A stretch of DNA of 64,000 bases, taken from positions 1-64,000 of the forward strand of contig JBBPSI010000113.1 in the NCBI GenBank assembly GCA_038093515.1, given 5' to 3'. The DNA comes from Butyriboletus loyo. Lineage: Eukaryota > Basidiomycota > Agaricomycetes > Boletales > Boletaceae. The notes under the pieces are model-generated. The model saw only the letters and a list, made by a program, of their open reading frames with translations, was not told the DNA's origin and made no database searches. Position numbers and translations under genes: made by a program. Below, one piece after another: positions 29,557 through 64,000 of this stretch (the first letter of the stretch is position 1; every line of letters begins with the position of its first letter).

Positions 29557-32500
29557 CTGCTCATCTAACTGTCCATGCTCCGTTAGAATCCAAGCGAAGG
29601 TGGTCTCATATGTGCGAACTATCCAGCAGACAAGTTTCAACTCCTCTGGCCACAGCCATTTAGCTGGGTTGAGGTCAAGAGCATCAGCACACTCTTGGGT
29701 GAATTGAGTTCCTGGAACAAATTCTGGTGGGTGAGTAGGCATAGTTGGTAACCCTGCCAATGGCTCATTGGGCAAGCAATGGATAACATGAAACTCTTCC
29801 TTAAGAGGAGCCACTACCATATGAACCTTCTTAGCCACTGGCTTGTAGGCTAGGGTATGAGAATTAGGATCTAAATAATATACTGATTGGAGCACGGAAA
29901 TCACAGCAGGAGTTAAAATGGAAGATGAAGAAGAGAGATGGGCATAATTCCCACTGAGCAGAGATGGAACAGAATGTTTGGAATTGGAAAGAGAAATGTT
30001 GAAGAGAGAAATGGAACTGGATGGTAAATCCGGATTCAAAGCAGAAAATGTGGAACCAGATGAGAAGGAATGGAATAAGGAACATGTAATCAAGGGCTTC
30101 AGGAATGGATATATTGCCTTGAATACCTCGTGCATTGGATAGATTATAGGATCTCCCTATCCATTTGACAGATCATCGAAACCTAAAAACCCATTTCCAC
30201 AATGCTCTGATGATTGGAACAGGAAATTCCTCAACAACAACAGGGACATCCCTCCCTCCATGGCCATGTGGGGAGTCTAAACTCCTTTCCACTGTTTGGA
30301 TCTCGGAGGGTGATGTCCTGCACTCCATCCAGAAAATCATTAGTAGTTGTGCTCATTAGACAATGAAAGGGTCGACCAAGCAATAGGTCAAAGTTGGCCT
30401 TTGTGATGACCTGAACCTGGAGAGAGATTTCCCCAGGTCCAAAGGTCAGCAGAAGATTCTCTAGAATGCCTAGAGTAGAATACATGTTGGTGTTGGCAGA
30501 CAACATCAACATCAGATGATCAGTGCGAACTGGAAGTCCTAGTGTCTCCCAGATCCGCTTAGGCATGGCAAAAATCTCACATCCAGAATCCAAGATGCAG
30601 GTAAGAACTCTTTCCAATCCTATGACCTTAGCCTCAAAGTATTGCAATGGGAGAGTGTGGTGAGTGACTATGAGTCCATTTTCGCTTCGGAGGATGTGAT
30701 CTCCATACTCCCACTCTACCATTCCAGGATCTCGACCAGATAGTTCATTCACCTGGACAGTATTTGCAGAAGGGGATAGCGCAGGGGCAGATATGCACTT
30801 TGTGGTGGTGAGATCACAGAACTGTTTATGGAATTTCAGAGCTACAGCAAAGAGTTCCTTGACTGGAACTGGAATCGATGACTCAAGTACTCTATCGAGA
30901 ACCCACTTCGGAGCAGTCTCGTCCTCAAGAGGAAAGGAATATTGGAATTGGTTGTTTGGTGGATGGGATGGGGCGAAACCGGAAGTTGGTATGGATGATC
31001 TGACAGGGGTAGTAGATAGTCTTGGAGGCATGTCCCTTCCAGTTGATGGTGTGACTGGAAGATTATCACTCACACGTCCAGAAGTATTGTGGGATTTCTC
31101 AATGACATGGGAGGTAGGTGGTGGTATTTCAGGCCTGCATGATTGTTGGATACCTGGGAACTCTATCTCTCAGAAACAGAAGCAGCATGGGTTTCCTGCC
31201 TCAGGGGTTGCCTTGGCAGAACTGCTACTCCATCGAAGTGAACTTACTTGGCATGATTCCCCTCTTTCAAGGTTCTCTCTGCCTGAAAGCTCGCCCAAGC
31301 TTGAACTAGAAAGGGTTGAAATTCAGGGTCAGTGATACTAGGAGGAGCAGAAACATTGTCTCTGCCTGAATAAAAGACAGATTTCTGCTCAAAGGCTACT
31401 GGCTCAAAATCCAGAACTACATCCATATCCAGATATGTCAAGGAGACAATTCTGGAAGTCATATGCAGAGGCATGTCCCAGATCCTGGAGGAACTTGCCA
31501 CTGGTGCTGTGCTCAAGCCAGAAGGATGTTCTGCCTCTAGTCTCTCGATGCAATCCTTTATGCATCAGGTTCCAGGTATGTGCAGAATGTGCGAATTATC
31601 TGCCATATACAAGCATCCATCTGCTCCATGAAGGATACACCCTGCCTGGATATACTCCTCTACACTTGGGCAAGAAAGCATAGGACTTGTGCTGTGCTGT
31701 CAGAGCATATTCCAGTTTTGGGACTTGAGGGATCAGAGGTTGGTGTCATATACTGGTTGGTACCTGGTTTTGACTTTGGTGTGTTGAAAAACTGTGATTG
31801 GTGGTAGTAGGTGCTGTGGCAGTTGTAGATGGAATAGTGGAAGATCAAAGTGCTGATCCTGTCAATAGAAACTTAGGTGCACCAATAGTATCAGTGATTG
31901 GGTATGGATTGTCAGGGTGGAGGTCCAACCAGACTATAGATAGCCAGTGCCGGATCCTTTCCTTCACATCCTGCGGAAATAAAAAGAGAATCATGTTCTG
32001 CCTCTGAACACTTCTTAGTAGCAATCAGGAGGGATGCGATCTTTATGAATTTCTGTCAGTACTCTCCAAGATCCTCTTGGCTGCACATTGCATGAGCCTT
32101 GGAATCCTGAACTAGATATTGGAGGTCAGCTCGACAATACTGGTCATCCCATTCGCATACGGGGTATAGATCTTTAACTGCTGATATGAATAACTCCCAA
32201 TCATCTCCTGAGGCTGAAGGCAGGGTTTCTCAAACCTTGGCCTCATCAAGATCCATGTAACGGATTGCTGCTCATATTTGTTGCAATTTCATGAGATCAG
32301 CAGAGACTCTGAGGAACTCAATATCCACTAAGTATTGTGGAAGCTGCACAGGAGTCTTTCTGTCGAACTTGGGTGTGTTTTGGGTACCTCTAAGAGGCAT
32401 CTAGAAGGTGTGAGGCATGGCTCATTGTGGAGCTGGTGATGGCAGTGGTGAAGGGTTTGGTATAGATTCAATAGTAGGATGATCCACAGGTGCAATATTA

Positions 32501-33070
32501 GCAATTCTGTAATGTTCCAGCATGGAATCCAAGAGATCAAGGGATATATGTTGTGTTGGTTGGAAGAGGAATAACAAGGAGAAGGAATCTGGAGTGTTTG
32601 GTTGTGAAGGTGGAAATGATGAAGTTAGAGATGTTAATGAAGATCCTCTAGATTCCGGTGGTTCTGAAAGATGGACAATATATGGATTTCAACAAGGAGA
32701 TGAGTGAGCAAAGGCACCAGGAACACCAGTTAACTTGAAACCCAAGAGATCTGGCACCAATGTCAAGGTGTGATGGACTGCTATTGCAGTTATCTAGTTT
32801 CCAGGAACTGAGTCTTGATAGCTGTCAACCTGTGTCAAGTCTGGCAGGTGATGTCTGTCTGATGTCTCTGTTGCTAGATTGACAGGAATTTCAAATGAGC
32901 TGTCAGTGGACCAGATCACATCGGAATTGGTAGTGATGACAGGTGTCAGGAATCAGGAATCCTCAGAATTCCGAAAATGCACGAGCAGGTTTTCTAGCTC
33001 GACATGCTATGGATTGGACTGAAGGGTCCTTCTCATCGATGCTTCTACTTCCCTTGCAGTGGGCTCCAGT
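29557..33070 (-). pseudogene. Gypsy family C fragment 2: Gag, protease and linker
   Basis: Minus strand from the 5' LTR at 33071. An 8-nt tggagccc motif 2 nt after the LTR is a conventional tRNA-type primer site. Then Gag (about 32540-31500, with a Cys/His knuckle region near 31700-31580), protease (CILDSGCEIFAMPKRIWETLG, catalytic DSG, near 30600; LLLGRPFHC), and the linker before RT (30135-29557). The RT, RNase H and integrase are missing where the plus-oriented C LTR begins. Numerous stops and frame shifts. Confidence 0.8.
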
Positions 33071-33785
33071 TGAACGATGCTGTATGGGACTGAGAGTGAA
33101 GAACCCTGCTATAGGAAGAACTCAATCCAATCAAAAGCAAAGAAATAAGAAAAGGGTGCAATATGATTGACCCCAAAGAGAAGTAGCAAGGAAACAAAGG
33201 GAGGAACACCAGGGAAGGTCATTTCCACTGATGTCTTTACAGAAAACCCGAAATTCCAGACTTCCTCCACTGTGGAACAGACTAGAGAGGACACGGAAAT
33301 GTGAGGAGATGGACAGAATTCATTGGCTATTGCTTGAAGATCAAGGAACAAGGATGGCAGGTGACTAGACAATCACATAGAGAGGCAGGAGAGTTGAAAA
33401 GTAATATTTTAGGTCATAGTTACAACCTTTTTGTAGTCTGGGCATTTCCCAAGACTTGAAACACTAAGGATAAGTGAAAACTAAGTAGAAACGTCAAGGA
33501 AATCATTGACAGAATGTACATAATCATAGCATTTGTCATAGAAGTTGAACAGATATAATAAGTAGAAGATCAAGTAGAAAGGAACCTACCTGTAAACACT
33601 TTCCAGACACATGAAACCTTGACATGGAATTTTGATGACCACAGAAATATCAGAATAGGATGGAACTTGATAAGGAAGAAGAAAGGAAGTGAAGAGAGTT
33701 GTGAAGTGATTGTTTGCAACACATTTGAGTGCTGAATTGCCAGGAGGAGGAGTGATTGTGACCTAGAGGATATGTGTTCTCTACA
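33071..33785 (-). repeat. 5' LTR of C fragment 2
   Basis: Reverse-oriented, 715 bp, tgaacgatgc..tctctaca; on the minus strand it is followed after 2 nt by tggagccc. The outer end abuts a Copia integrase relic. Confidence 0.88.
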
Positions 33786-45634: not shown

Positions 45635-46948
45635 CATGTCATGCTGCATCTGTGCACACACACTACATACTTGTAATATCCTATATAACTGGCCCAGTAA
45701 CATATGTATGTTTTTATCAAGAAGGAAGTTTATTGCCTTATTATCACCATGAAATATATCTCTGCTGCTCAAAGGCACAATATCCTCTCTCTAGCTTCTC
45801 TTGATATTTCCTCTAGGCAAATTGCATCCCATACTGGCCTAGGGAAGTCTACAGTGGCTAGGGTACCCCAAGAGATCCAACCTGACAAGAAGAAGCTTCA
45901 TGCTGGCTATTCTTCTAAGCTTACTCCTACCAACAAATGTGCTATTGTCCAGCAAATCATTACTGGCAAGGCCAAAAATGCAGTCCAGGCTACAAATTTC
46001 ATCAATTTCATCATTGAACCTCCCATCCCCTTACATACAGTGAGAAATGCCCTCAAGGAGGGTGCATTTAAAGGCTGTGATGAAGAAGAAAAAATGACTT
46101 CTTCTAATCAGCCCTGGAAAAAGTTGATTTGCCTTTGCTCTCAAGTATCAATAAGGACTGAATGGGACCAAAATAAATATAATTGGATCAGATGGACTGG
46201 AGTATATGTGTGGAAAAAGAAGTGAGAGGGCCTAACTGCCAGAGAGGTTAAAGGTGTGGTTGGGTTTGGAGTAAGTTTCCTAATGGTGTGGGGTTCACTG
46301 GAATGGGGGCATTAAATGAGGTTGAGGGGAGGATGGATGGTGAACAGTATGTGTAAATTCTAGAGGAAGAATTGCTATAACACATGGAGAAATCTGGAAT
46401 TTCTGAACATGATATCATTTTTCAGCAGAATAATGATCCCAAACATACCTCCAAAAGAGCCCAGAATTGGTTTGAGAAGCAAGGAATCAAGCTTCTGGGT
46501 TGGCCTGTACACTCTCCAGATCTCAATCCTATTGAACACACTTGGGGTCATCTGAAAAGATGCCTTTCAGTTTATTCAACTGCTCCTACATGGATTTATC
46601 AATTATGGGAAAGGGTGGAAAAGCAGTGGGGGAACATTTCTGTAAAAGAGTGTCAAATGTAGATAGAAAGCATTCCTAGAAGAATCCAAGAAGTTATTAA
46701 GGCCAAGGGAGGTCATACTAAGTATTAAATACCATTTCTTATATAAAGTCAAAGAACTGTCCCAATGAGTTGTCATTTTGATATGGCTTCTATTCAGTCA
46801 GATCTTATCCATATTGTTTGGCCCAGAGATCATTGAGAAAGGCCTTCCTTTCATACACCAATGACCTAACCTTAGGATTAGGTGCCAACTAAATATATTG
46901 TAATTAGTAAGCAACATGCAAACATTGGGACTGTTGTTTGAGCTACTA
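45635..46948 (+). pseudogene. Tc1-like element M, left end missing
   Basis: Transposase N-terminus from MKYISAAQRHNIL (45750) with HTH (ISSRQIASHTGLGKSTVAR), then a degenerate middle, then MEKSGISEHDIIFQQNNDPKHTSKRAQNWF.. and SPDLNPIEHTWGHLKRCL (catalytic Glu kept) to about 46725. The catalytic second Asp is Asn (QQNNDP, where L has QQDNDP). The right inverted repeat spans about 46735-46948, with inner gtcaaagaactgtcccaatg and outer cattgggactgttgtttgag. The left inverted repeat is absent next to the Copia LTR. Confidence 0.85.
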
Positions 46949-54745: not shown

Positions 54746-54848
54746 GGGGAGGGCAGCTTTACTGCTGAGAAGCAGAAGTGAGGTGAAGATCTAGTTCTTT
54801 TGTTATGTTTGGTGCTAACAACAAGAACTCTGAGGCAGCACTCTGGAG

Positions 54849-56411
54849 GAACTGTCCACATGTTCGCATGTTTTACATTAAATATCACTCAACACAATAA
54901 CCCCTGATCCTAACCCTAGGCAGTGGGTGTATGGAATATGGTACCCACGCTTGGCATTCTATTGGCCTAGTAATCAGGTAATATAGATAAGGTTTGATGG
55001 AATGCCAGCTATTTTAAAATGACAGGTCATGCATTAAGTTTTGATCACATATATTAGACCTTAGATGCTGTAATATCATTACATACATCCATCAAGGGTC
55101 CTATTATGTCACCTTTATGTAACTGAGTGTCAGCCAACATATAAAAACCCCATCCTCCCATGTTTATTTTCTCACCATCACCATGAAATCCATTTTCACC
55201 TCTCTAAGACAAAATATTATCTCTCTCTCCTCTCTTGGCCTTTCAACTAGGAAGATTGCCTCCCAGACTGGCCTAGGGAAGTCTACTGTTGCTAGAGTAC
55301 TCCAAGAGATCCAACCTGACAAGGAGAAGCTTCATGCTGGCTGTCCTTCTAAGCTTACTCCTACCAACAAATGTGCTATTGTCCAGAAAATCATTACTGG
55401 CAAGGCCAAAAATGCAGTCCAGGCTACAAATTTCATCAATTCCATCATTGAACCTCCTATCCCCTCACACACAATGAGAAAAGACCCCAAGGAGAATGCA
55501 TTTAAAGGCTGTGATGGAGAAGAAGAAATGTCATCTTCCAATCAGCCCTAGAAAAAGATGATTTGTCTTTGCTCTCAAGTATCAATAAGGACTGGAAGAG
55601 GATTATTGGGTCAGATGAGACCAAAATAAATAGAATTGGGTCAGATGGACAGAAGTGTATGTGTGGAAAAAGAAGTGAGAGGGCCTAACTGCTAGAGAGG
55701 TTAAAGGTACAGTCAAGTTTGGAGGAAGTTTCCTAATGGTATAGGGTTCAATGGAGTGGGGGCTTTAAGTGAGGTTGAGGGGAGGATGGATGGTGAACAG
55801 TATGTGTAAATTCTAGAGGAAGAATTGCTATAACACATGGAGAAATCTAGAATTTCTGAACATGATATCATTTTTCAGCAGAATAATGATCCCAAACATA
55901 CCTCCAAAAGAGCCCAGAATTGGTTTGAGAAGCAAGGAATCAAGCTTCTGGATTGGCCTGCACAATCTCCAGACCTCAACCCCATTGAACACACTTGGAA
56001 TCACCTCAAAAGATGTCTCTCAGCTTATAATAGCACTCCTATAGGAGTTCATCAATTATGGGAAAGGGTGGTAGTAGAGTGGGGGAATATTTCTGTGGAA
56101 CAGTGTCACAAATGGATAGAAAGCATGCCTAGAAGAGTTGAAGCAGTTATCAAGGCCAAGGGAGCTCATACCAAATACTAGATAGTGGAATTCTTGTAAA
56201 GTCAAAAAACTGTCTGCATGACCTGTTATTTTAAAATAGCTGGCATTCCATCAAACCTTATCCATATTACCTGATTAATGGGCCAATAGAATGCCAAGAG
56301 TGGGTACTGTATTTCATACACCCACTGCCTAGGGTTAGGATCAGGGGCTATTGCATTGAGTGATATTTAATGTAAAACTTGCAAACATGCGGACAGTTTT
56401 TTGAGCCACTG
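54849..56411 (+). mobile_element. Tc1-like element G, first ~15 bp of left repeat missing
   Basis: Left inverted repeat begins inside the outer motif (aactgtccacatg); right end ttttttgagccactg at 56411 followed by TA. Transposase: MKSIFTSLRQNIISLSSLGLSTRKIASQTGLGKSTVAR (HTH; ATG 55183), open to a TAG near 55549, then SDETKIN (first Asp, about 55613), degenerate middle, then FQQNNDPKHTS (second Asp changed to Asn, as in M) and SPDLNPIEHTWNHL (Glu kept), ending ..GAHTKY at 56181. Related to M and to the palindrome at 61365-62558. Confidence 0.88.
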
Positions 56412-56413
56412 TA

Positions 56414-56741
56414 TATGCTTTCTCATAATATATTACATACCTGTGACATAATAGAACCCTTACCTATGATACATAAGCACTTTACAGTATTCCAGGGTCC
56501 AATGTATGTGATAAGAATTTAAAGTCAAAGAATTGTCCCAATGAGTGACTGTTTTGATATGGCTATCATTCAATCAGATTTCATCCAAATCTTTTGCACT
56601 ATAGACCAGTTCTGTAGCCTTGAGTGTCATCATTCTTCCATACACCAGTGGCGTAGGGTTAGGATAGTGGTTATCAGGGAATATTATTGTTAGTGTAAAA
56701 CATACAAACATTGGGACAATTGTTTGAGCCACTGTATCTGC
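56414..56741 (-). repeat. Tc1-like terminal fragment H
   Basis: 5' subterminal region and inverted repeat of a minus-strand Tc1-like element of the M type: inner gtcaaagaattgtcccaatg (near 56525) and outer cattgggacaattgtttgag ending gccactg next to TA at about 56740. The coding part is gone, replaced by element G. Inserted in the family-C element. Confidence 0.75.
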
Positions 56742-60652: not shown

Positions 60653-61354
60653 TGAATGATGCTAGATGGGACTGAGAGTGAAGAACCCTGCTACAGGAAG
60701 AACTCAATCCAATCAAAAGCAAAGAAATAAAGAAAAGTGTGCAATATGATCAACCCCAAAGGAAAGTAGAGAGGAAACCAAGAGAGGAAGACCAGGGAAG
60801 CTTGTCTCCACTGATCTTTATACAGACAACCCATAATTATGGACTTCCTCCACTGTGGAACAGACTGGAGAGGATACAGAGGTGTGAGAATATGGATGGA
60901 ATCCATTGGCTATAGCTTGAGGATCAAGGGATGAGGATGGAGGGTGACTAGACAATGGCACAAAGAAGCAGGAGTGTTGAAAAGTGGTATTTTAGGTTGT
61001 AGTTACAACCTTTTTATAGTCTGGGCATTTCCCAAGACTTGAAACACTAAGGATAAGTGAAAACTAAGTAGAAACATGAAGGAAATCATTGACAGAATGT
61101 ACATAAGCATAGGGGTTGTCATAGGAGTTGATCAGATATAATAAGTATGAGATCAAATAGAAAGGACCTACTGGTGAACACTTTCTGGACACATGGAACC
61201 TGGATGACCACAGAAATATTGGAATCAGTTGGAATTTGATAAGGAAGATGAAAGGAAGTGAGGAGTGTTGCAAAGCAAGTATTTGTGATGCAAGTGGGTG
61301 CTGAATTGCCTGAAAGAGGAGTGACTCTGACCTAGAGAATATGTATTCTCTACA
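60653..61354 (-). repeat. 5' LTR of C fragment 3
   Basis: 702 bp, tgaatgatgc..tctctaca on the plus strand. TATA-type box (ctataaaaagg on the minus strand near 61015). The outer end abuts the left arm of the Tc1 palindrome. Confidence 0.88.
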
Positions 61355-62558
61355 CCAGTGCTTGGCCTTTTATTGGCCCAGGAATCATATGGATAAGGTT
61401 TGATGGAATGGCAACTATTTCAAAATGACAGGTCATGTGGACAGTTTTTTGACTTTAAGTTTTGATCACATATATTAGACCCTAGATGCTGTAATATCAT
61501 TACATACATCCATCAAGGGTCCTATTATGTCACCTTTATGTAACTGAGTGTTAGCCAACATATATAAACCCTATCCTTCTATGTTTATTTTCTCACCATC
61601 ACCATGAAATCCATTTCAACCTCTCTAAGACAAAATGTTATCTCTCTCTCCTCTCTTGACCTTTCAACTAGGAAGATTGCCTTCCAGACTGACCTAGGGA
61701 AGTATACAGTGGCCCAGGTTCTTCAGGAAATCCAACAAGAGAGCTATTGTTCAGCAAATCATAACTGGCAAGGCCAAAAATGCTGTCCCTTCTTTTTCCA
61801 CACATACTCTTGGCCATCTGACCCAATTCTGTTGATTTTGGTCTCATCTGACCATCACAGTCCAATGCTGATACTTGAGAGCAAAGGCCAATCTTCTTTT
61901 TCTATGATTGATTTCTTCACCACAGCTTTCAATGAGGCCTCCTTGAGGGTATCCCTCACTGTCTGTGAGGAGACAGGAGAGTTAACAATAGAATTGATAA
62001 ATTGAGCAGCTTGGACAGCATTTTTGGCCTTGCCAGTTATGATTTGCTGAACAATAGCTCTCTTGTTGGATTTCCTGAAGAACCTGGGCCACTGTATACT
62101 TCCCTAGGTCAGTCTGGAAGGCAATCTTCCTAGTTGAAAGGTCAAGAGAGGAGAGAGAGATAACATTTTGTCTTAGAGAGGTTGAAATGGATTTCATGGT
62201 GATGGTGAGAAAATAAACATAGAAGGATAGGGTTTATATATGTTGGCTAACACTCAGTTACATAAAGGTGACATAATAGGACCCTTGATGGATGTATGTA
62301 ATGATATTACAGCATCTAGGGTCTAATATATGTGATCAAAACTTAAAGTCAAAAAACTGTCCACATGACCTGTCATTTTGAAATAGCTGCCATTCCATCA
62401 AACCTTATCCATATTGCCTCATTCCTGAGCCAATAAAAGGCCAGGAGCGGGTACCGTATTTCATACACCCACCACCTAGGGTTAGGATCAGGGGCTATTT
62501 CATTGAGTGATATTTAATGTAAAACATGCAAACATGCTGACAGTTTTTTGAGCCACTG
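61355..62558. mobile_element. Palindromic (foldback) Tc1-like derivative
   Basis: Left arm about 61365-61788 and right arm about 62013-62437 are inverted copies, almost identical over some 420 bp (one substitution seen in the inner 400 bp), around a 224-bp spacer. Each arm holds the Tc1 5' region and the first ~62 codons of the transposase (MKSISTSLRQNVISLSSL..; starts at 61604 plus and 62197 minus). Both arms share the same deletion and frame shift after QEIQQ. The right side keeps the full inverted repeat ending gccactg at 62558 with TA; the left lacks the outermost part. The spacer is minus-strand transposase sequence up to SDETKINRIGSDGQ. Transcription through it would give a long hairpin RNA. 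Confidence 0.92.
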
Positions 62559-62560
62559 TA

Positions 62561-62856
62561 TATTGTACAGAATGGTACACAGACCAAGCTATGTGTGTGA
62601 CAATCTACCATACATGGATAGACTAAGAAGCACACAGAGATCAAAGAGAAGAGAAGTGGAATGGAGATTAAGTACATGAGGTGTGATGTCATAGTCTAGA
62701 CTGATAATGTCATGGACTGGTCTGGACCAATGATGTCATAGGCTCTGTCTATACTTGGTCACATGTACTGTCTCACAATCATGTGTACAAGGTCATGGGA
62801 CTTTGAAAGTAGAAATGACAAGTCCAAAAGTGTGGAAATAATATAGTATTATAACA
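62561..62856 (-). repeat. 3' LTR (family D) of element J, cut by the Tc1 palindrome
   Basis: Right-hand 296 bp of LTR D, ending tattataaca at 62856. The Tc1 derivative is inserted at the TA of the LTR's TATA region (tatattgtacag). The remaining part of the LTR is not found on the other side. It is followed by a C-rich tract (ctacccccctagg), the complement of a polypurine tract, which marks this as a 3' LTR on the minus strand. Confidence 0.85.
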
Positions 62857-64000
62857 CTACCCCCCTAGGACTCATATTCCAGACAAGTTCCTTGATAAAA
62901 GATTCCATGTTCTGGACCAAATTCCTTAAATAATGAAGAAAATTCAAATAAAGTAAGGCCTCAAAGAGGTCAAGGGGTGGAAGGGTGGGCATGGTGATAA
63001 TCCACAATAACATCCTGTGAGTTGCCCAAATTGGAAACTGGTTCCCAAGTTTGATCCATTTCATCATACCCTCTCCAGTGTACCAGATACTCTAGCTTTT
63101 TGCACTTCATCCATGAAGAGACCATATAGTCTACTTCAAATTCTGTGTGTCCTTTGTCTGTGATGTTGACAGGGTCTGGGCAGATGATAGGTTGCCCAGA
63201 TAGGGTTTCCTAATAAGGTTTGACATGTGAAATATTTACAGTTGGATGAATATGCATGCTACTCAGCAGCTGAAGCATAACAGCATTTGGCTTGAGAGCT
63301 GTGATCCAATAAGGACCAATCCAATGCTGCATGAGTTTCCTAGTGGTGTATGGTAGCTTCAAGTTCTCCATACTGAGCCAAATTCTATCTCCCAGTTTGT
63401 ACTCCAGTGCAGCTGATCATCTATTATCAGCTTGTGATACCATTCCTTTTCTAGCTTCTTCCAAAGCTTCTTTAAGTTTGGCATGAGCCTTTTCAGCTCT
63501 ATGTGCAAAATCTCCAGCCAATGTAGAAGAAGACTTTTCAAATCTGACTTATGGATAATAGTTACAAGTGATAGAGAATGGAATAGTGGCAGTGGCAGTG
63601 GTAAGGGAATTGTTATGGTTGAACTGAGCAATTTTAATCCACTCAGCCCACATTTCTTGTTTTTTAGCCACATATTGTATATACCAGTACTTAGACAGTA
63701 CAAGTTCTTTAGCTAATTCTATGCATCTACCTTGTGTATAGCAATCTAGCTTATACCCCATCCTTGCCAATAGAGCTGATAAGAGTCTACTTGATCTCAT
63801 CTGGTTGCCACCACTCAATATCTCACTGACACTTGCTTTGCAGGAACCTGATAGTGTTGTCTATGCAAGTTGACCATTACCCAATTAGGTCAAGCTGCTA
63901 TTGAGTGCTTACTAGCTAACTTGTTGTGTGCATCGGTGTAACATTGGAGGACTTCTTTTATGATATTCTCATGTTCTGCCTTAGTTCTCCCTTTCATGAA
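62857..64000 (-). pseudogene. pol: Element J: chromodomain Gypsy, 3' end of pol
   Basis: Minus strand, right to left. RT near the window edge (FMKGRTKAEHENIIKEVLQ, 64000-63945), then an LTR2 fragment (63944-63675), then integrase C-terminal part (WAEWIKIAQFNHNNSLTTATATIPFSITCNYYP, 63650-63550), GPY-like region, and a chromodomain (EFEVDYMVSSWMKCKKLEYLVHWRGYDEMDQTWEPVSNL, 63150-63020) with a stop near 62970. RNase H and most of integrase are missing at the LTR2 junction. It seems to represent the autonomous family behind LTR D. Unlike A/B it has no ORF3 after the chromodomain: the LTR follows within about 115 bp. Confidence 0.85.
63675..63944 (-). mobile_element. Partial LTR2 in element J
   Basis: On the minus strand it starts tgttacaccg at 63944 and matches the first ~260 bp of the LTR at 38491, ending near the TATA-like gtatatac. 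The RT sequence on one side and integrase on the other are not contiguous, so a deletion accompanied or followed the insertion. Confidence 0.8.

What the first reader, a model, noticed from the sequence alone, without database searches (positions are those of the whole stretch)
61365..62437. A natural 420-bp hairpin made from a Tc1-like transposon
Two nearly identical inverted arms carry the promoter region, start codon and first ~62 codons of the transposase; both share the same internal deletion and frame shift, so one arm was copied from the other after the deletion. Read from either side or from the flanking LTR, it would give a long double-stranded RNA matching related Tc1 elements (G at 54849, M at 45635). 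Foldback loci of this sort can act as trans-silencers through RNA interference (Mu killer in maize is the known precedent). Whether this one does is inference.
Basis: partly seen in the sequence, partly recalled or inferred. Interest (0 to 1): 0.8.

Follow-up and report, generated by a model that had tools for sequence, protein, structure and literature searches.

The report
Transposon hairpin in a mushroom genome
In a mushroom-type fungus one broken jumping-gene copy has folded half of itself back into a near-perfect hairpin that could make double-stranded RNA against its relatives, but the complete relatives that we checked are already broken, so it looks more like a repair accident than a proven silencer.

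Summary
The hairpin is real and its junction occurs once in a 30.3-Mb genome (Boletaceae-like by one gene). Inner arms 61387-61788 and 62013-62414 match at 401 of 402 positions around 224 nt of native transposase sequence. The right half (61789-62558) is an ordinary Tc1-like 5' part with its TIR tip; the left arm is its inverted copy. The outer 32 bp are far more diverged (6 substitutions, a 5-bp indel) and lie inside the TIR: a young copied tract in an older, broken insertion, most simply from fold-back repair, or from later conversion between arms. Core RNAi domains (Piwi, paired RNase III, RdRP) are present, each arm keeps the family's TATA-ATG region, and all 39 family loci examined share 53-143 of 382 exact 21-mers with the arm. 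Against a dedicated silencer: 21 of 21 full-length copies examined have no ATG frame above 127 aa (intact relatives: 338 aa), and the five Tc1 frames of 300 aa or more found share no 21-mer with it. The flanking LTR is oriented away; copy M shares no 21-mer. Verdict: structure confirmed; trans-silencing possible but unshown; Mu killer-like architecture without evidence of its function.

The parts
61355..61386 (.). outer left arm: TIR segment next to the LTR; 6 substitutions and a 5-bp deletion against the right arm
61387..61788 (+). inner left arm: inverted copy of 62013-62414 (401 of 402), with TIR inner part, TATA motif, ATG and 185 nt of transposase
61559..61571 (+). TATA-type motif of the left arm (mirror copy 62230-62242 on -); CATATA(T/A)AAACCC is found in 20 of 21 full-length copies
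61604..62005 (+). open frame from the left arm's ATG across the junction into the spacer, 133 aa; no Pfam match; two partial relatives (45-51% identity over about half) but no identical protein in the protein database
61789..62012 (-). spacer/loop: native continuation of the transposase of the right-hand element
62013..62414 (-). inner right arm (native orientation, inferred donor)
62344..62558 (-). 5' terminal inverted repeat of the right-hand element, tip CAGTGG at 62558, TA at 62559-62560
60653..61354 (-). 702-bp LTR (TG...CA) abutting the left arm; sense direction leftward, away from the hairpin
62559..62900 (.). right flank: part of another repeat family (43 matches counted in the genome, itself included; a lower bound) into which the Tc1 end is inserted
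54830..56420 (+). copy G, a family member with stops inside its DDE region, sharing 80 of 382 exact 21-mers with the arm

Best explanation
An old, already damaged Tc1-like insertion underwent a recent fold-back (snap-back) repair event: the strand being copied turned round inside the transposase, copied the 5' half backwards, and rejoined the element's own left TIR, replacing its 3' half by an inverted copy of the 5' half. Shown: the anatomy, the single junction and the two identity levels. Inferred: the repair route. The product is a by-product of repair. It can probably make double-stranded RNA when either arm's own promoter fires (about 198 bp of stem from an assumed internal start; the full 400 bp needs outside transcription or pairing of the two convergent transcripts), and such RNA would feed siRNAs against a family whose full-length copies are, as far as examined, already non-autonomous. 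I expect at most a minor, incidental silencing role.
For: Right half contiguous with the family's 5' part, left arm a copy of it. 401/402 inner identity against 6 differences in 32 columns in the outer TIR segment, Fisher p = 6.7e-7 (hand-counted columns, boundary seen before testing). The identity break lies within the TIR, where an original left TIR would allow rejoining. Both outer segments share a private C-to-T (CCTTTTATTGG) found only in the window's own rows of the 78-row TIR alignment, so they belong to one element lineage. Single junction. Internal-start transcript folds with 198 arm-arm pairs. 21 of 21 full-length copies have no ATG frame over 127 aa, against 338 aa in intact relatives from public data.
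Against: A later arm-to-arm gene conversion of an older inverted duplication explains the two identity levels as well. No microhomology is seen at the inner junction (by eye). Exact 21-mers to 39 of 39 family loci and the presence of core RNAi domains are what a working silencer would need. The 39 loci are not the whole family (one search counted 176 matches, not all listed), and 127 of the 132 DDE_3 matches were not read, so an intact family copy could have been missed or lie outside the assembly.
Confidence: 0.6

Rival explanations
1. A Mu killer-like trans-silencer: the locus is transcribed, its hairpin RNA is diced, and the siRNAs silence family members across the genome. (Compatible with either origin; the odds given here and elsewhere are not exclusive.)
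For: Long near-perfect stem; arms carry promoter motif, start codon and first codons, the same kind of region as in Mu killer; Piwi, RNase III and RdRP domains present; 39 of 39 family loci share exact 21-mers, 37 of 39 also within the coding part; runs of exact match up to 130 nt; loss of RNAi frees a DNA transposon in another basidiomycete, Cryptococcus (PMC6643885, passages).
Against: No expression or small-RNA data; flanking LTR oriented away; 21 of 21 full-length targets examined are already defective; the five Tc1 frames of 300 aa or more share 0 of 382 21-mers, in stretches of 1701 bases each; other close inverted repeats (three further places, arms 390-719 bp, 88-93%, spacers under 800 nt) occur in the same kind of TE-rich sequence.
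Confidence: 0.2
2. An older inverted duplication whose inner 400 bp were later made identical by gene conversion between the arms; the outer 32 bp escaped.
For: Abrupt change from 1 of 402 to 6 of 32 differences; shared private substitution in both outer segments.
Against: Needs two events; the break lies inside the TIR, as the one-event model expects.
Confidence: 0.3
3. An assembly artefact (chimeric or palindromic read).
For: Inner arms nearly identical; no reads or second assembly seen; the junction-spanning frame has no identical entry in the protein database, which says little.
Against: Arms differ in sequence (mismatch at 61414, 6 substitutions and a 5-bp indel outside), have different flanks, and the left arm stops exactly at an LTR end.
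Confidence: 0.07
4. Two separate Tc1 copies inserted head to head, both later truncated.
For: Head-to-head 5' halves.
Against: 401/402 identity and the same 53-bp deletion in both, while 21 separate full-length copies differ by 3.9% at the median.
Confidence: 0.03

Closest known systems
Mu killer (maize)
   Same: Partial inverted duplication of a DNA transposon's transposase gene with TIR region; proposed source of hairpin RNA and siRNAs (PMC3440606: abstract start in listing and passages)
   Different: Mu killer silences an active MuDR in crosses; here no transcript, siRNA or intact target is known, the arms are about 0.4 kb against a proposed ~4 kb hairpin RNA, and the host is a basidiomycete
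Drosophila hairpin RNA (hpRNA) loci, e.g. Nmy and hp-ODox2
   Same: Young inverted repeats; hp-ODox2 arms are a transposable element and give siRNAs complementary to it (PMC10317233, passages)
   Different: Those have transcripts and Dcr-2-dependent siRNAs; this one has sequence only
Tc1 TIR read-through dsRNA in C. elegans (Sijen and Plasterk 2003: recalled, not read; named as a citation in a passage of PMC6643885)
   Same: Tc1-type inverted sequence as a possible dsRNA source for silencing
   Different: There, as recalled, the dsRNA comes from the TIRs of ordinary copies; here from an internal inverted duplication that adds promoter and coding sequence
Fold-back inverted duplications at DNA breaks (yeast; PMC11724301, abstract start in listing)
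   Same: Inverted templated copy made by fold-back at a break
   Different: Those described are mostly about 5-34 bp; this tract is about 400 bp

Membership tests
Tc1-like DNA transposon (parent element) | Terminal inverted repeats and TA target duplication | tested here: met
   For the family: 25 of 39 loci have both tips, 23 of these 25 with TA on both sides; 21 of the 25 are 1554-1596 bp; TIR about 218 bp. The hairpin element itself shows only its right tip with TA
Tc1-like DNA transposon (parent element) | Tc1 transposase domains | tested here: met
   In relatives, not in the hairpin's own 133-aa frame (no Pfam match): a related long frame on C83 has HTH_Tnp_Tc3_2; 338-aa relatives carry PF01498 and PF13358; places of family copies appear among the DDE_3 matches
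Mu killer-type trans-silencer | Long inverted duplication of transposase 5' part | tested here: met
Mu killer-type trans-silencer | Hairpin or antisense transcript from the locus | not testable with these tools
   no RNA data held; promoter motif kept in both arms, LTR oriented away
Mu killer-type trans-silencer | siRNAs from the arms | not testable with these tools
   RNAi domains present, small RNAs not seen
Mu killer-type trans-silencer | Intact autonomous target matched by the hairpin | tested here: inconclusive
   None found: 21 of 21 full-length copies defective; 5 of 132 DDE_3 matches lie in frames of 300 aa or more and all 5 share 0 of 382 21-mers. The other 127 matches were not read and copies outside the 39 fetched loci were not checked
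hpRNA locus | Dicer-dependent siRNAs from one hairpin transcript | not testable with these tools
   no small-RNA data
Foldback (FB) transposon family | Multi-copy elements that move as hairpins (defining feature recalled) | tested here: not met
   junction occurs once at up to 3 mismatches; no second facing pair of places among the listed matches

The most novel reading that the evidence does not exclude
A self-adjusting silencer: both arms keep the family's own promoter facing inward, so whatever wakes the transposon's promoter also makes the hairpin RNA, giving a feedback brake against the whole family in a mushroom, formed by one repair event in an old copy. That every full-length copy examined is now defective would then be the outcome of a successful shutdown rather than evidence against it.
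Probability: 0.1. Interest if true: 0.75.

Novelty: new member of a known kind. Interest (0 to 1): 0.4.

Why it matters
Naturally formed hairpins from selfish DNA that give silencing RNA are known from maize and flies; a fungal case would show that the first dsRNA trigger can arise by chance repair inside a dead copy. A survey of fungal hairpin small RNAs (PMC9757828, passages) says that work is needed to tell clearly whether induction of RNAi by long hairpin RNAs occurs naturally in organisms. This locus is a clean test: one copy, near-perfect arms, own promoter motifs, many matching relatives and RNAi-type genes in the same genome.

Tried and rejected
Head-to-head insertion of two copies: rejected by 401/402 identity and the shared 53-bp deletion. 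Six-base microhomology at the inner junction (suggested by an alignment overlap 61783-61788): rejected, only 4 of 6 bases agree (by eye). A DIRS-type inverted terminal repeat on the left: rejected for an LTR with TG...CA ends and a minus-strand interior. A directed C-to-T mutation process in the arms: 13 of 30 differences are C>T/G>A, against 6 T>C/A>G and 11 transversions; no clear signature. Independent confirmation of the junction through its 133-aa frame: no identical protein among 2 matches, uninformative. Host identity by 18S: four busy answers, replaced by one Dicer-like frame, 84% identical to Lanmaoa and Butyriboletus proteins. Literature: none of the titles and abstract starts listed by searches reports a natural Tc1-like inverted-duplication silencer in a fungus (lists were capped in 30: 12 of 13, 31: 15 of 62, 62: 10 of 30), and one search (Boletaceae, transposable elements, Tc1) found no paper; only open-licence PMC papers are held. 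Passages were read in four papers.

Full report
What is there. The inverted repeat is real: arms 61387-61788 and 62013-62414, 402 nt, with 224 nt between them; by alignment 401 of 402 positions agree, the exception being 61414 (A against G). Weaker homology goes on outward to 61355 and 62452, with 6 substitutions in 32 columns and a 5-bp indel. The RNA folds as one long stem. Of 9 inverted pairs of 80 nt or more within 6 kb in the window it is the only one with a spacer under 1 kb. A word search with up to 3 mismatches found the arm-spacer junction once in the 30.3-Mb, 420-contig assembly, and the 1073-bp query gave no second facing pair of places among the listed matches (176 in all, not all listed).

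Anatomy. The right arm, the spacer and the stretch up to 62558 form one continuous 5' part of a Tc1-like element: terminal inverted repeat of about 218 bp ending CAGTGG next to TA, TATA motif, ATG, transposase start. The left arm is the inverted copy. Both arms lack the same 53 bp that relatives have, which shifts the frame. The left arm ends exactly at a 702-bp LTR (60653-61354) whose TG end faces the hairpin. The four frames tested in that retroelement are on the minus strand: three have no Pfam match and one has DUF4100 below its cut-off; a parallel copy of the element at 29844-33785 (81% identical) holds an aspartyl-protease frame just over its cut-off, also on the minus strand. So the LTR's sense transcription should go left, away from the hairpin; backward firing was not tested. 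On the right the element sits in another repeat with 43 counted matches in the genome, itself included.

The family. I fetched 39 loci of the family. 25 of 39 have both tips, and 23 of these 25 have TA on both sides; 21 are 1554-1596 bp long, and four longer or shorter ones were left out of the next counts. Among the 21, the median pairwise identity is 96.1% and the best pair 98.7%; 20 of 21 hold CATATA(T/A)AAACCC; the longest ATG frames are 85-127 aa. Relatives in public data are intact at 338 aa with PF01498 and PF13358, up to 88% identical to a related long frame on C83. Against one such relative, 15 of the 21 copies match in pieces in more than one frame and 6 in one frame only; the ORF lengths show that these 6 are broken too. 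So the examined family looks non-autonomous. Five of 132 DDE_3 matches lie in frames of 300 aa or more; stretches of 1701 bases around all five share 0 of 382 21-mers with the arm, and three that were compared are about 45% identical in protein to the C83 frame. The other 127 matches were not read.

History. The hairpin belongs to a side branch: its 5' part is 88.7% identical to the C205 copy, 86-89% to the other loci aligned and 84% to G (L027, L029, L030 and L031 were not in that alignment). The two identity levels, 1 difference in 402 inside and 6 in 32 outside (Fisher p = 6.7e-7, with hand-counted columns and a boundary chosen after seeing the data), show a young tract inside an older insertion. 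Both outer segments carry CCTTTTATTGG, found only in the window's own rows of a 78-row TIR alignment, while the left alone has GGAATCATATGG and the right alone GAATGAGGCAAT. The break lies inside the TIR. One fold-back copy that rejoined the element's own left TIR explains this in one step; conversion between the arms of an older inverted duplication explains it in two. Both are inference.

Could it silence? For: Piwi-domain matches (19, on C38, C326, C67, C6, C33), paired RNase III domains on C33 and C24, the C24 frame 84% identical to Dicer-like proteins of boletes, and RdRP matches on C16, C2, C163; each of 39 loci shares 53-143 of 382 exact 21-mers with the arm, longest exact runs 39-130 nt, 37 of 39 also within the coding part, and copy G shares 80. 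A transcript from an assumed start at 61590, some 20-30 nt after the TATA motif, pairs arm to arm over 198 bp, -448.0 kcal/mol against -176.3 for a same-length stretch of one ordinary copy. Against: no RNA data; LTR orientation; copy M shares no 21-mer; defective targets; and close inverted repeats are not rare in this TE-rich DNA: three further places with arms of 390-719 bp at 88-93% identity and spacers under 800 nt (C205, C293, C274), one with 208-bp arms (89%, spacer 180) and one with 450-bp arms (96%, spacer 1195) in the biased 325,256 fetched bases. This one has the highest identity among those with arms of 390 nt or more; the shorter TIR pairs of some ordinary copies reach 98-99.5%.

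Comparison. The architecture is that of Mu killer, a partial inverted duplication of a transposase gene with TIR (PMC3440606, abstract start and passages). That paper's passages also report antisense transcripts starting inside Mu killer and dispute read-through from a flanking gene as their source, which makes internal promoters the relevant question here too. In flies, hp-ODox2 is a hairpin whose arms are a transposable element and which gives matching siRNAs (PMC10317233, passages). In the basidiomycete Cryptococcus, deleting AGO1 or RDP1 raises the count of colonies that report movement of a DNA transposon 1,000- to 10,000-fold (PMC6643885, passages). Structure places this locus with known kinds; function is untested, and an intact matched target, needed for a Mu killer-type case, was not found in what I examined.

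Host. One Dicer-like frame is 84% identical to proteins of Lanmaoa asiatica and Butyriboletus roseoflavus, so the genome is probably of Boletaceae; this rests on one gene. The same search found a 100% match on an unnamed 5,021-base public contig, so reads of this or a very close organism are probably public.

The odds of the best explanation and of the rivals are not exclusive, since origin and function are separate questions.

Noticed in passing
G000 C2:181404, C195:7681, C351:11489, C274:13665, C229:33061: DDE_3 transposase matches in frames of 313-365 aa without stops, sharing no 21-mer with the hairpin; three start alike (MGHVMHKK) and may be active movers in this genome (inference).
   Followed up: partly
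21 full-length copies among L009-L047: A Tc1-like family of about 1590 bp whose 21 full-length copies examined are all broken, yet up to 98.7% alike, as if defective copies had been amplified in trans.
   Followed up: partly
window 62559-62860 and the 5' flanks of L015, L029, L031: Several family members sit at TA sites in one other repeat family, suggesting a preferred target.
   Followed up: no
L068, L070/L074, L075 (C205, C274, C293): Close inverted pairs in loci fetched through the LTR, arms 390-719 bp, 88-93% identical, spacers 318-768 nt.
   Followed up: no
window 56433-56737: A TIR-like stretch about 69% identical to the hairpin family's end, abutting the left end of the retroelement; probably a second Tc1 family.
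   Followed up: no
L033 and L034 (C416, C219): Two contigs carry what looks like the same Tc1 copy with the same near flanks, perhaps two haplotypes or a duplication; identity not computed.
   Followed up: no
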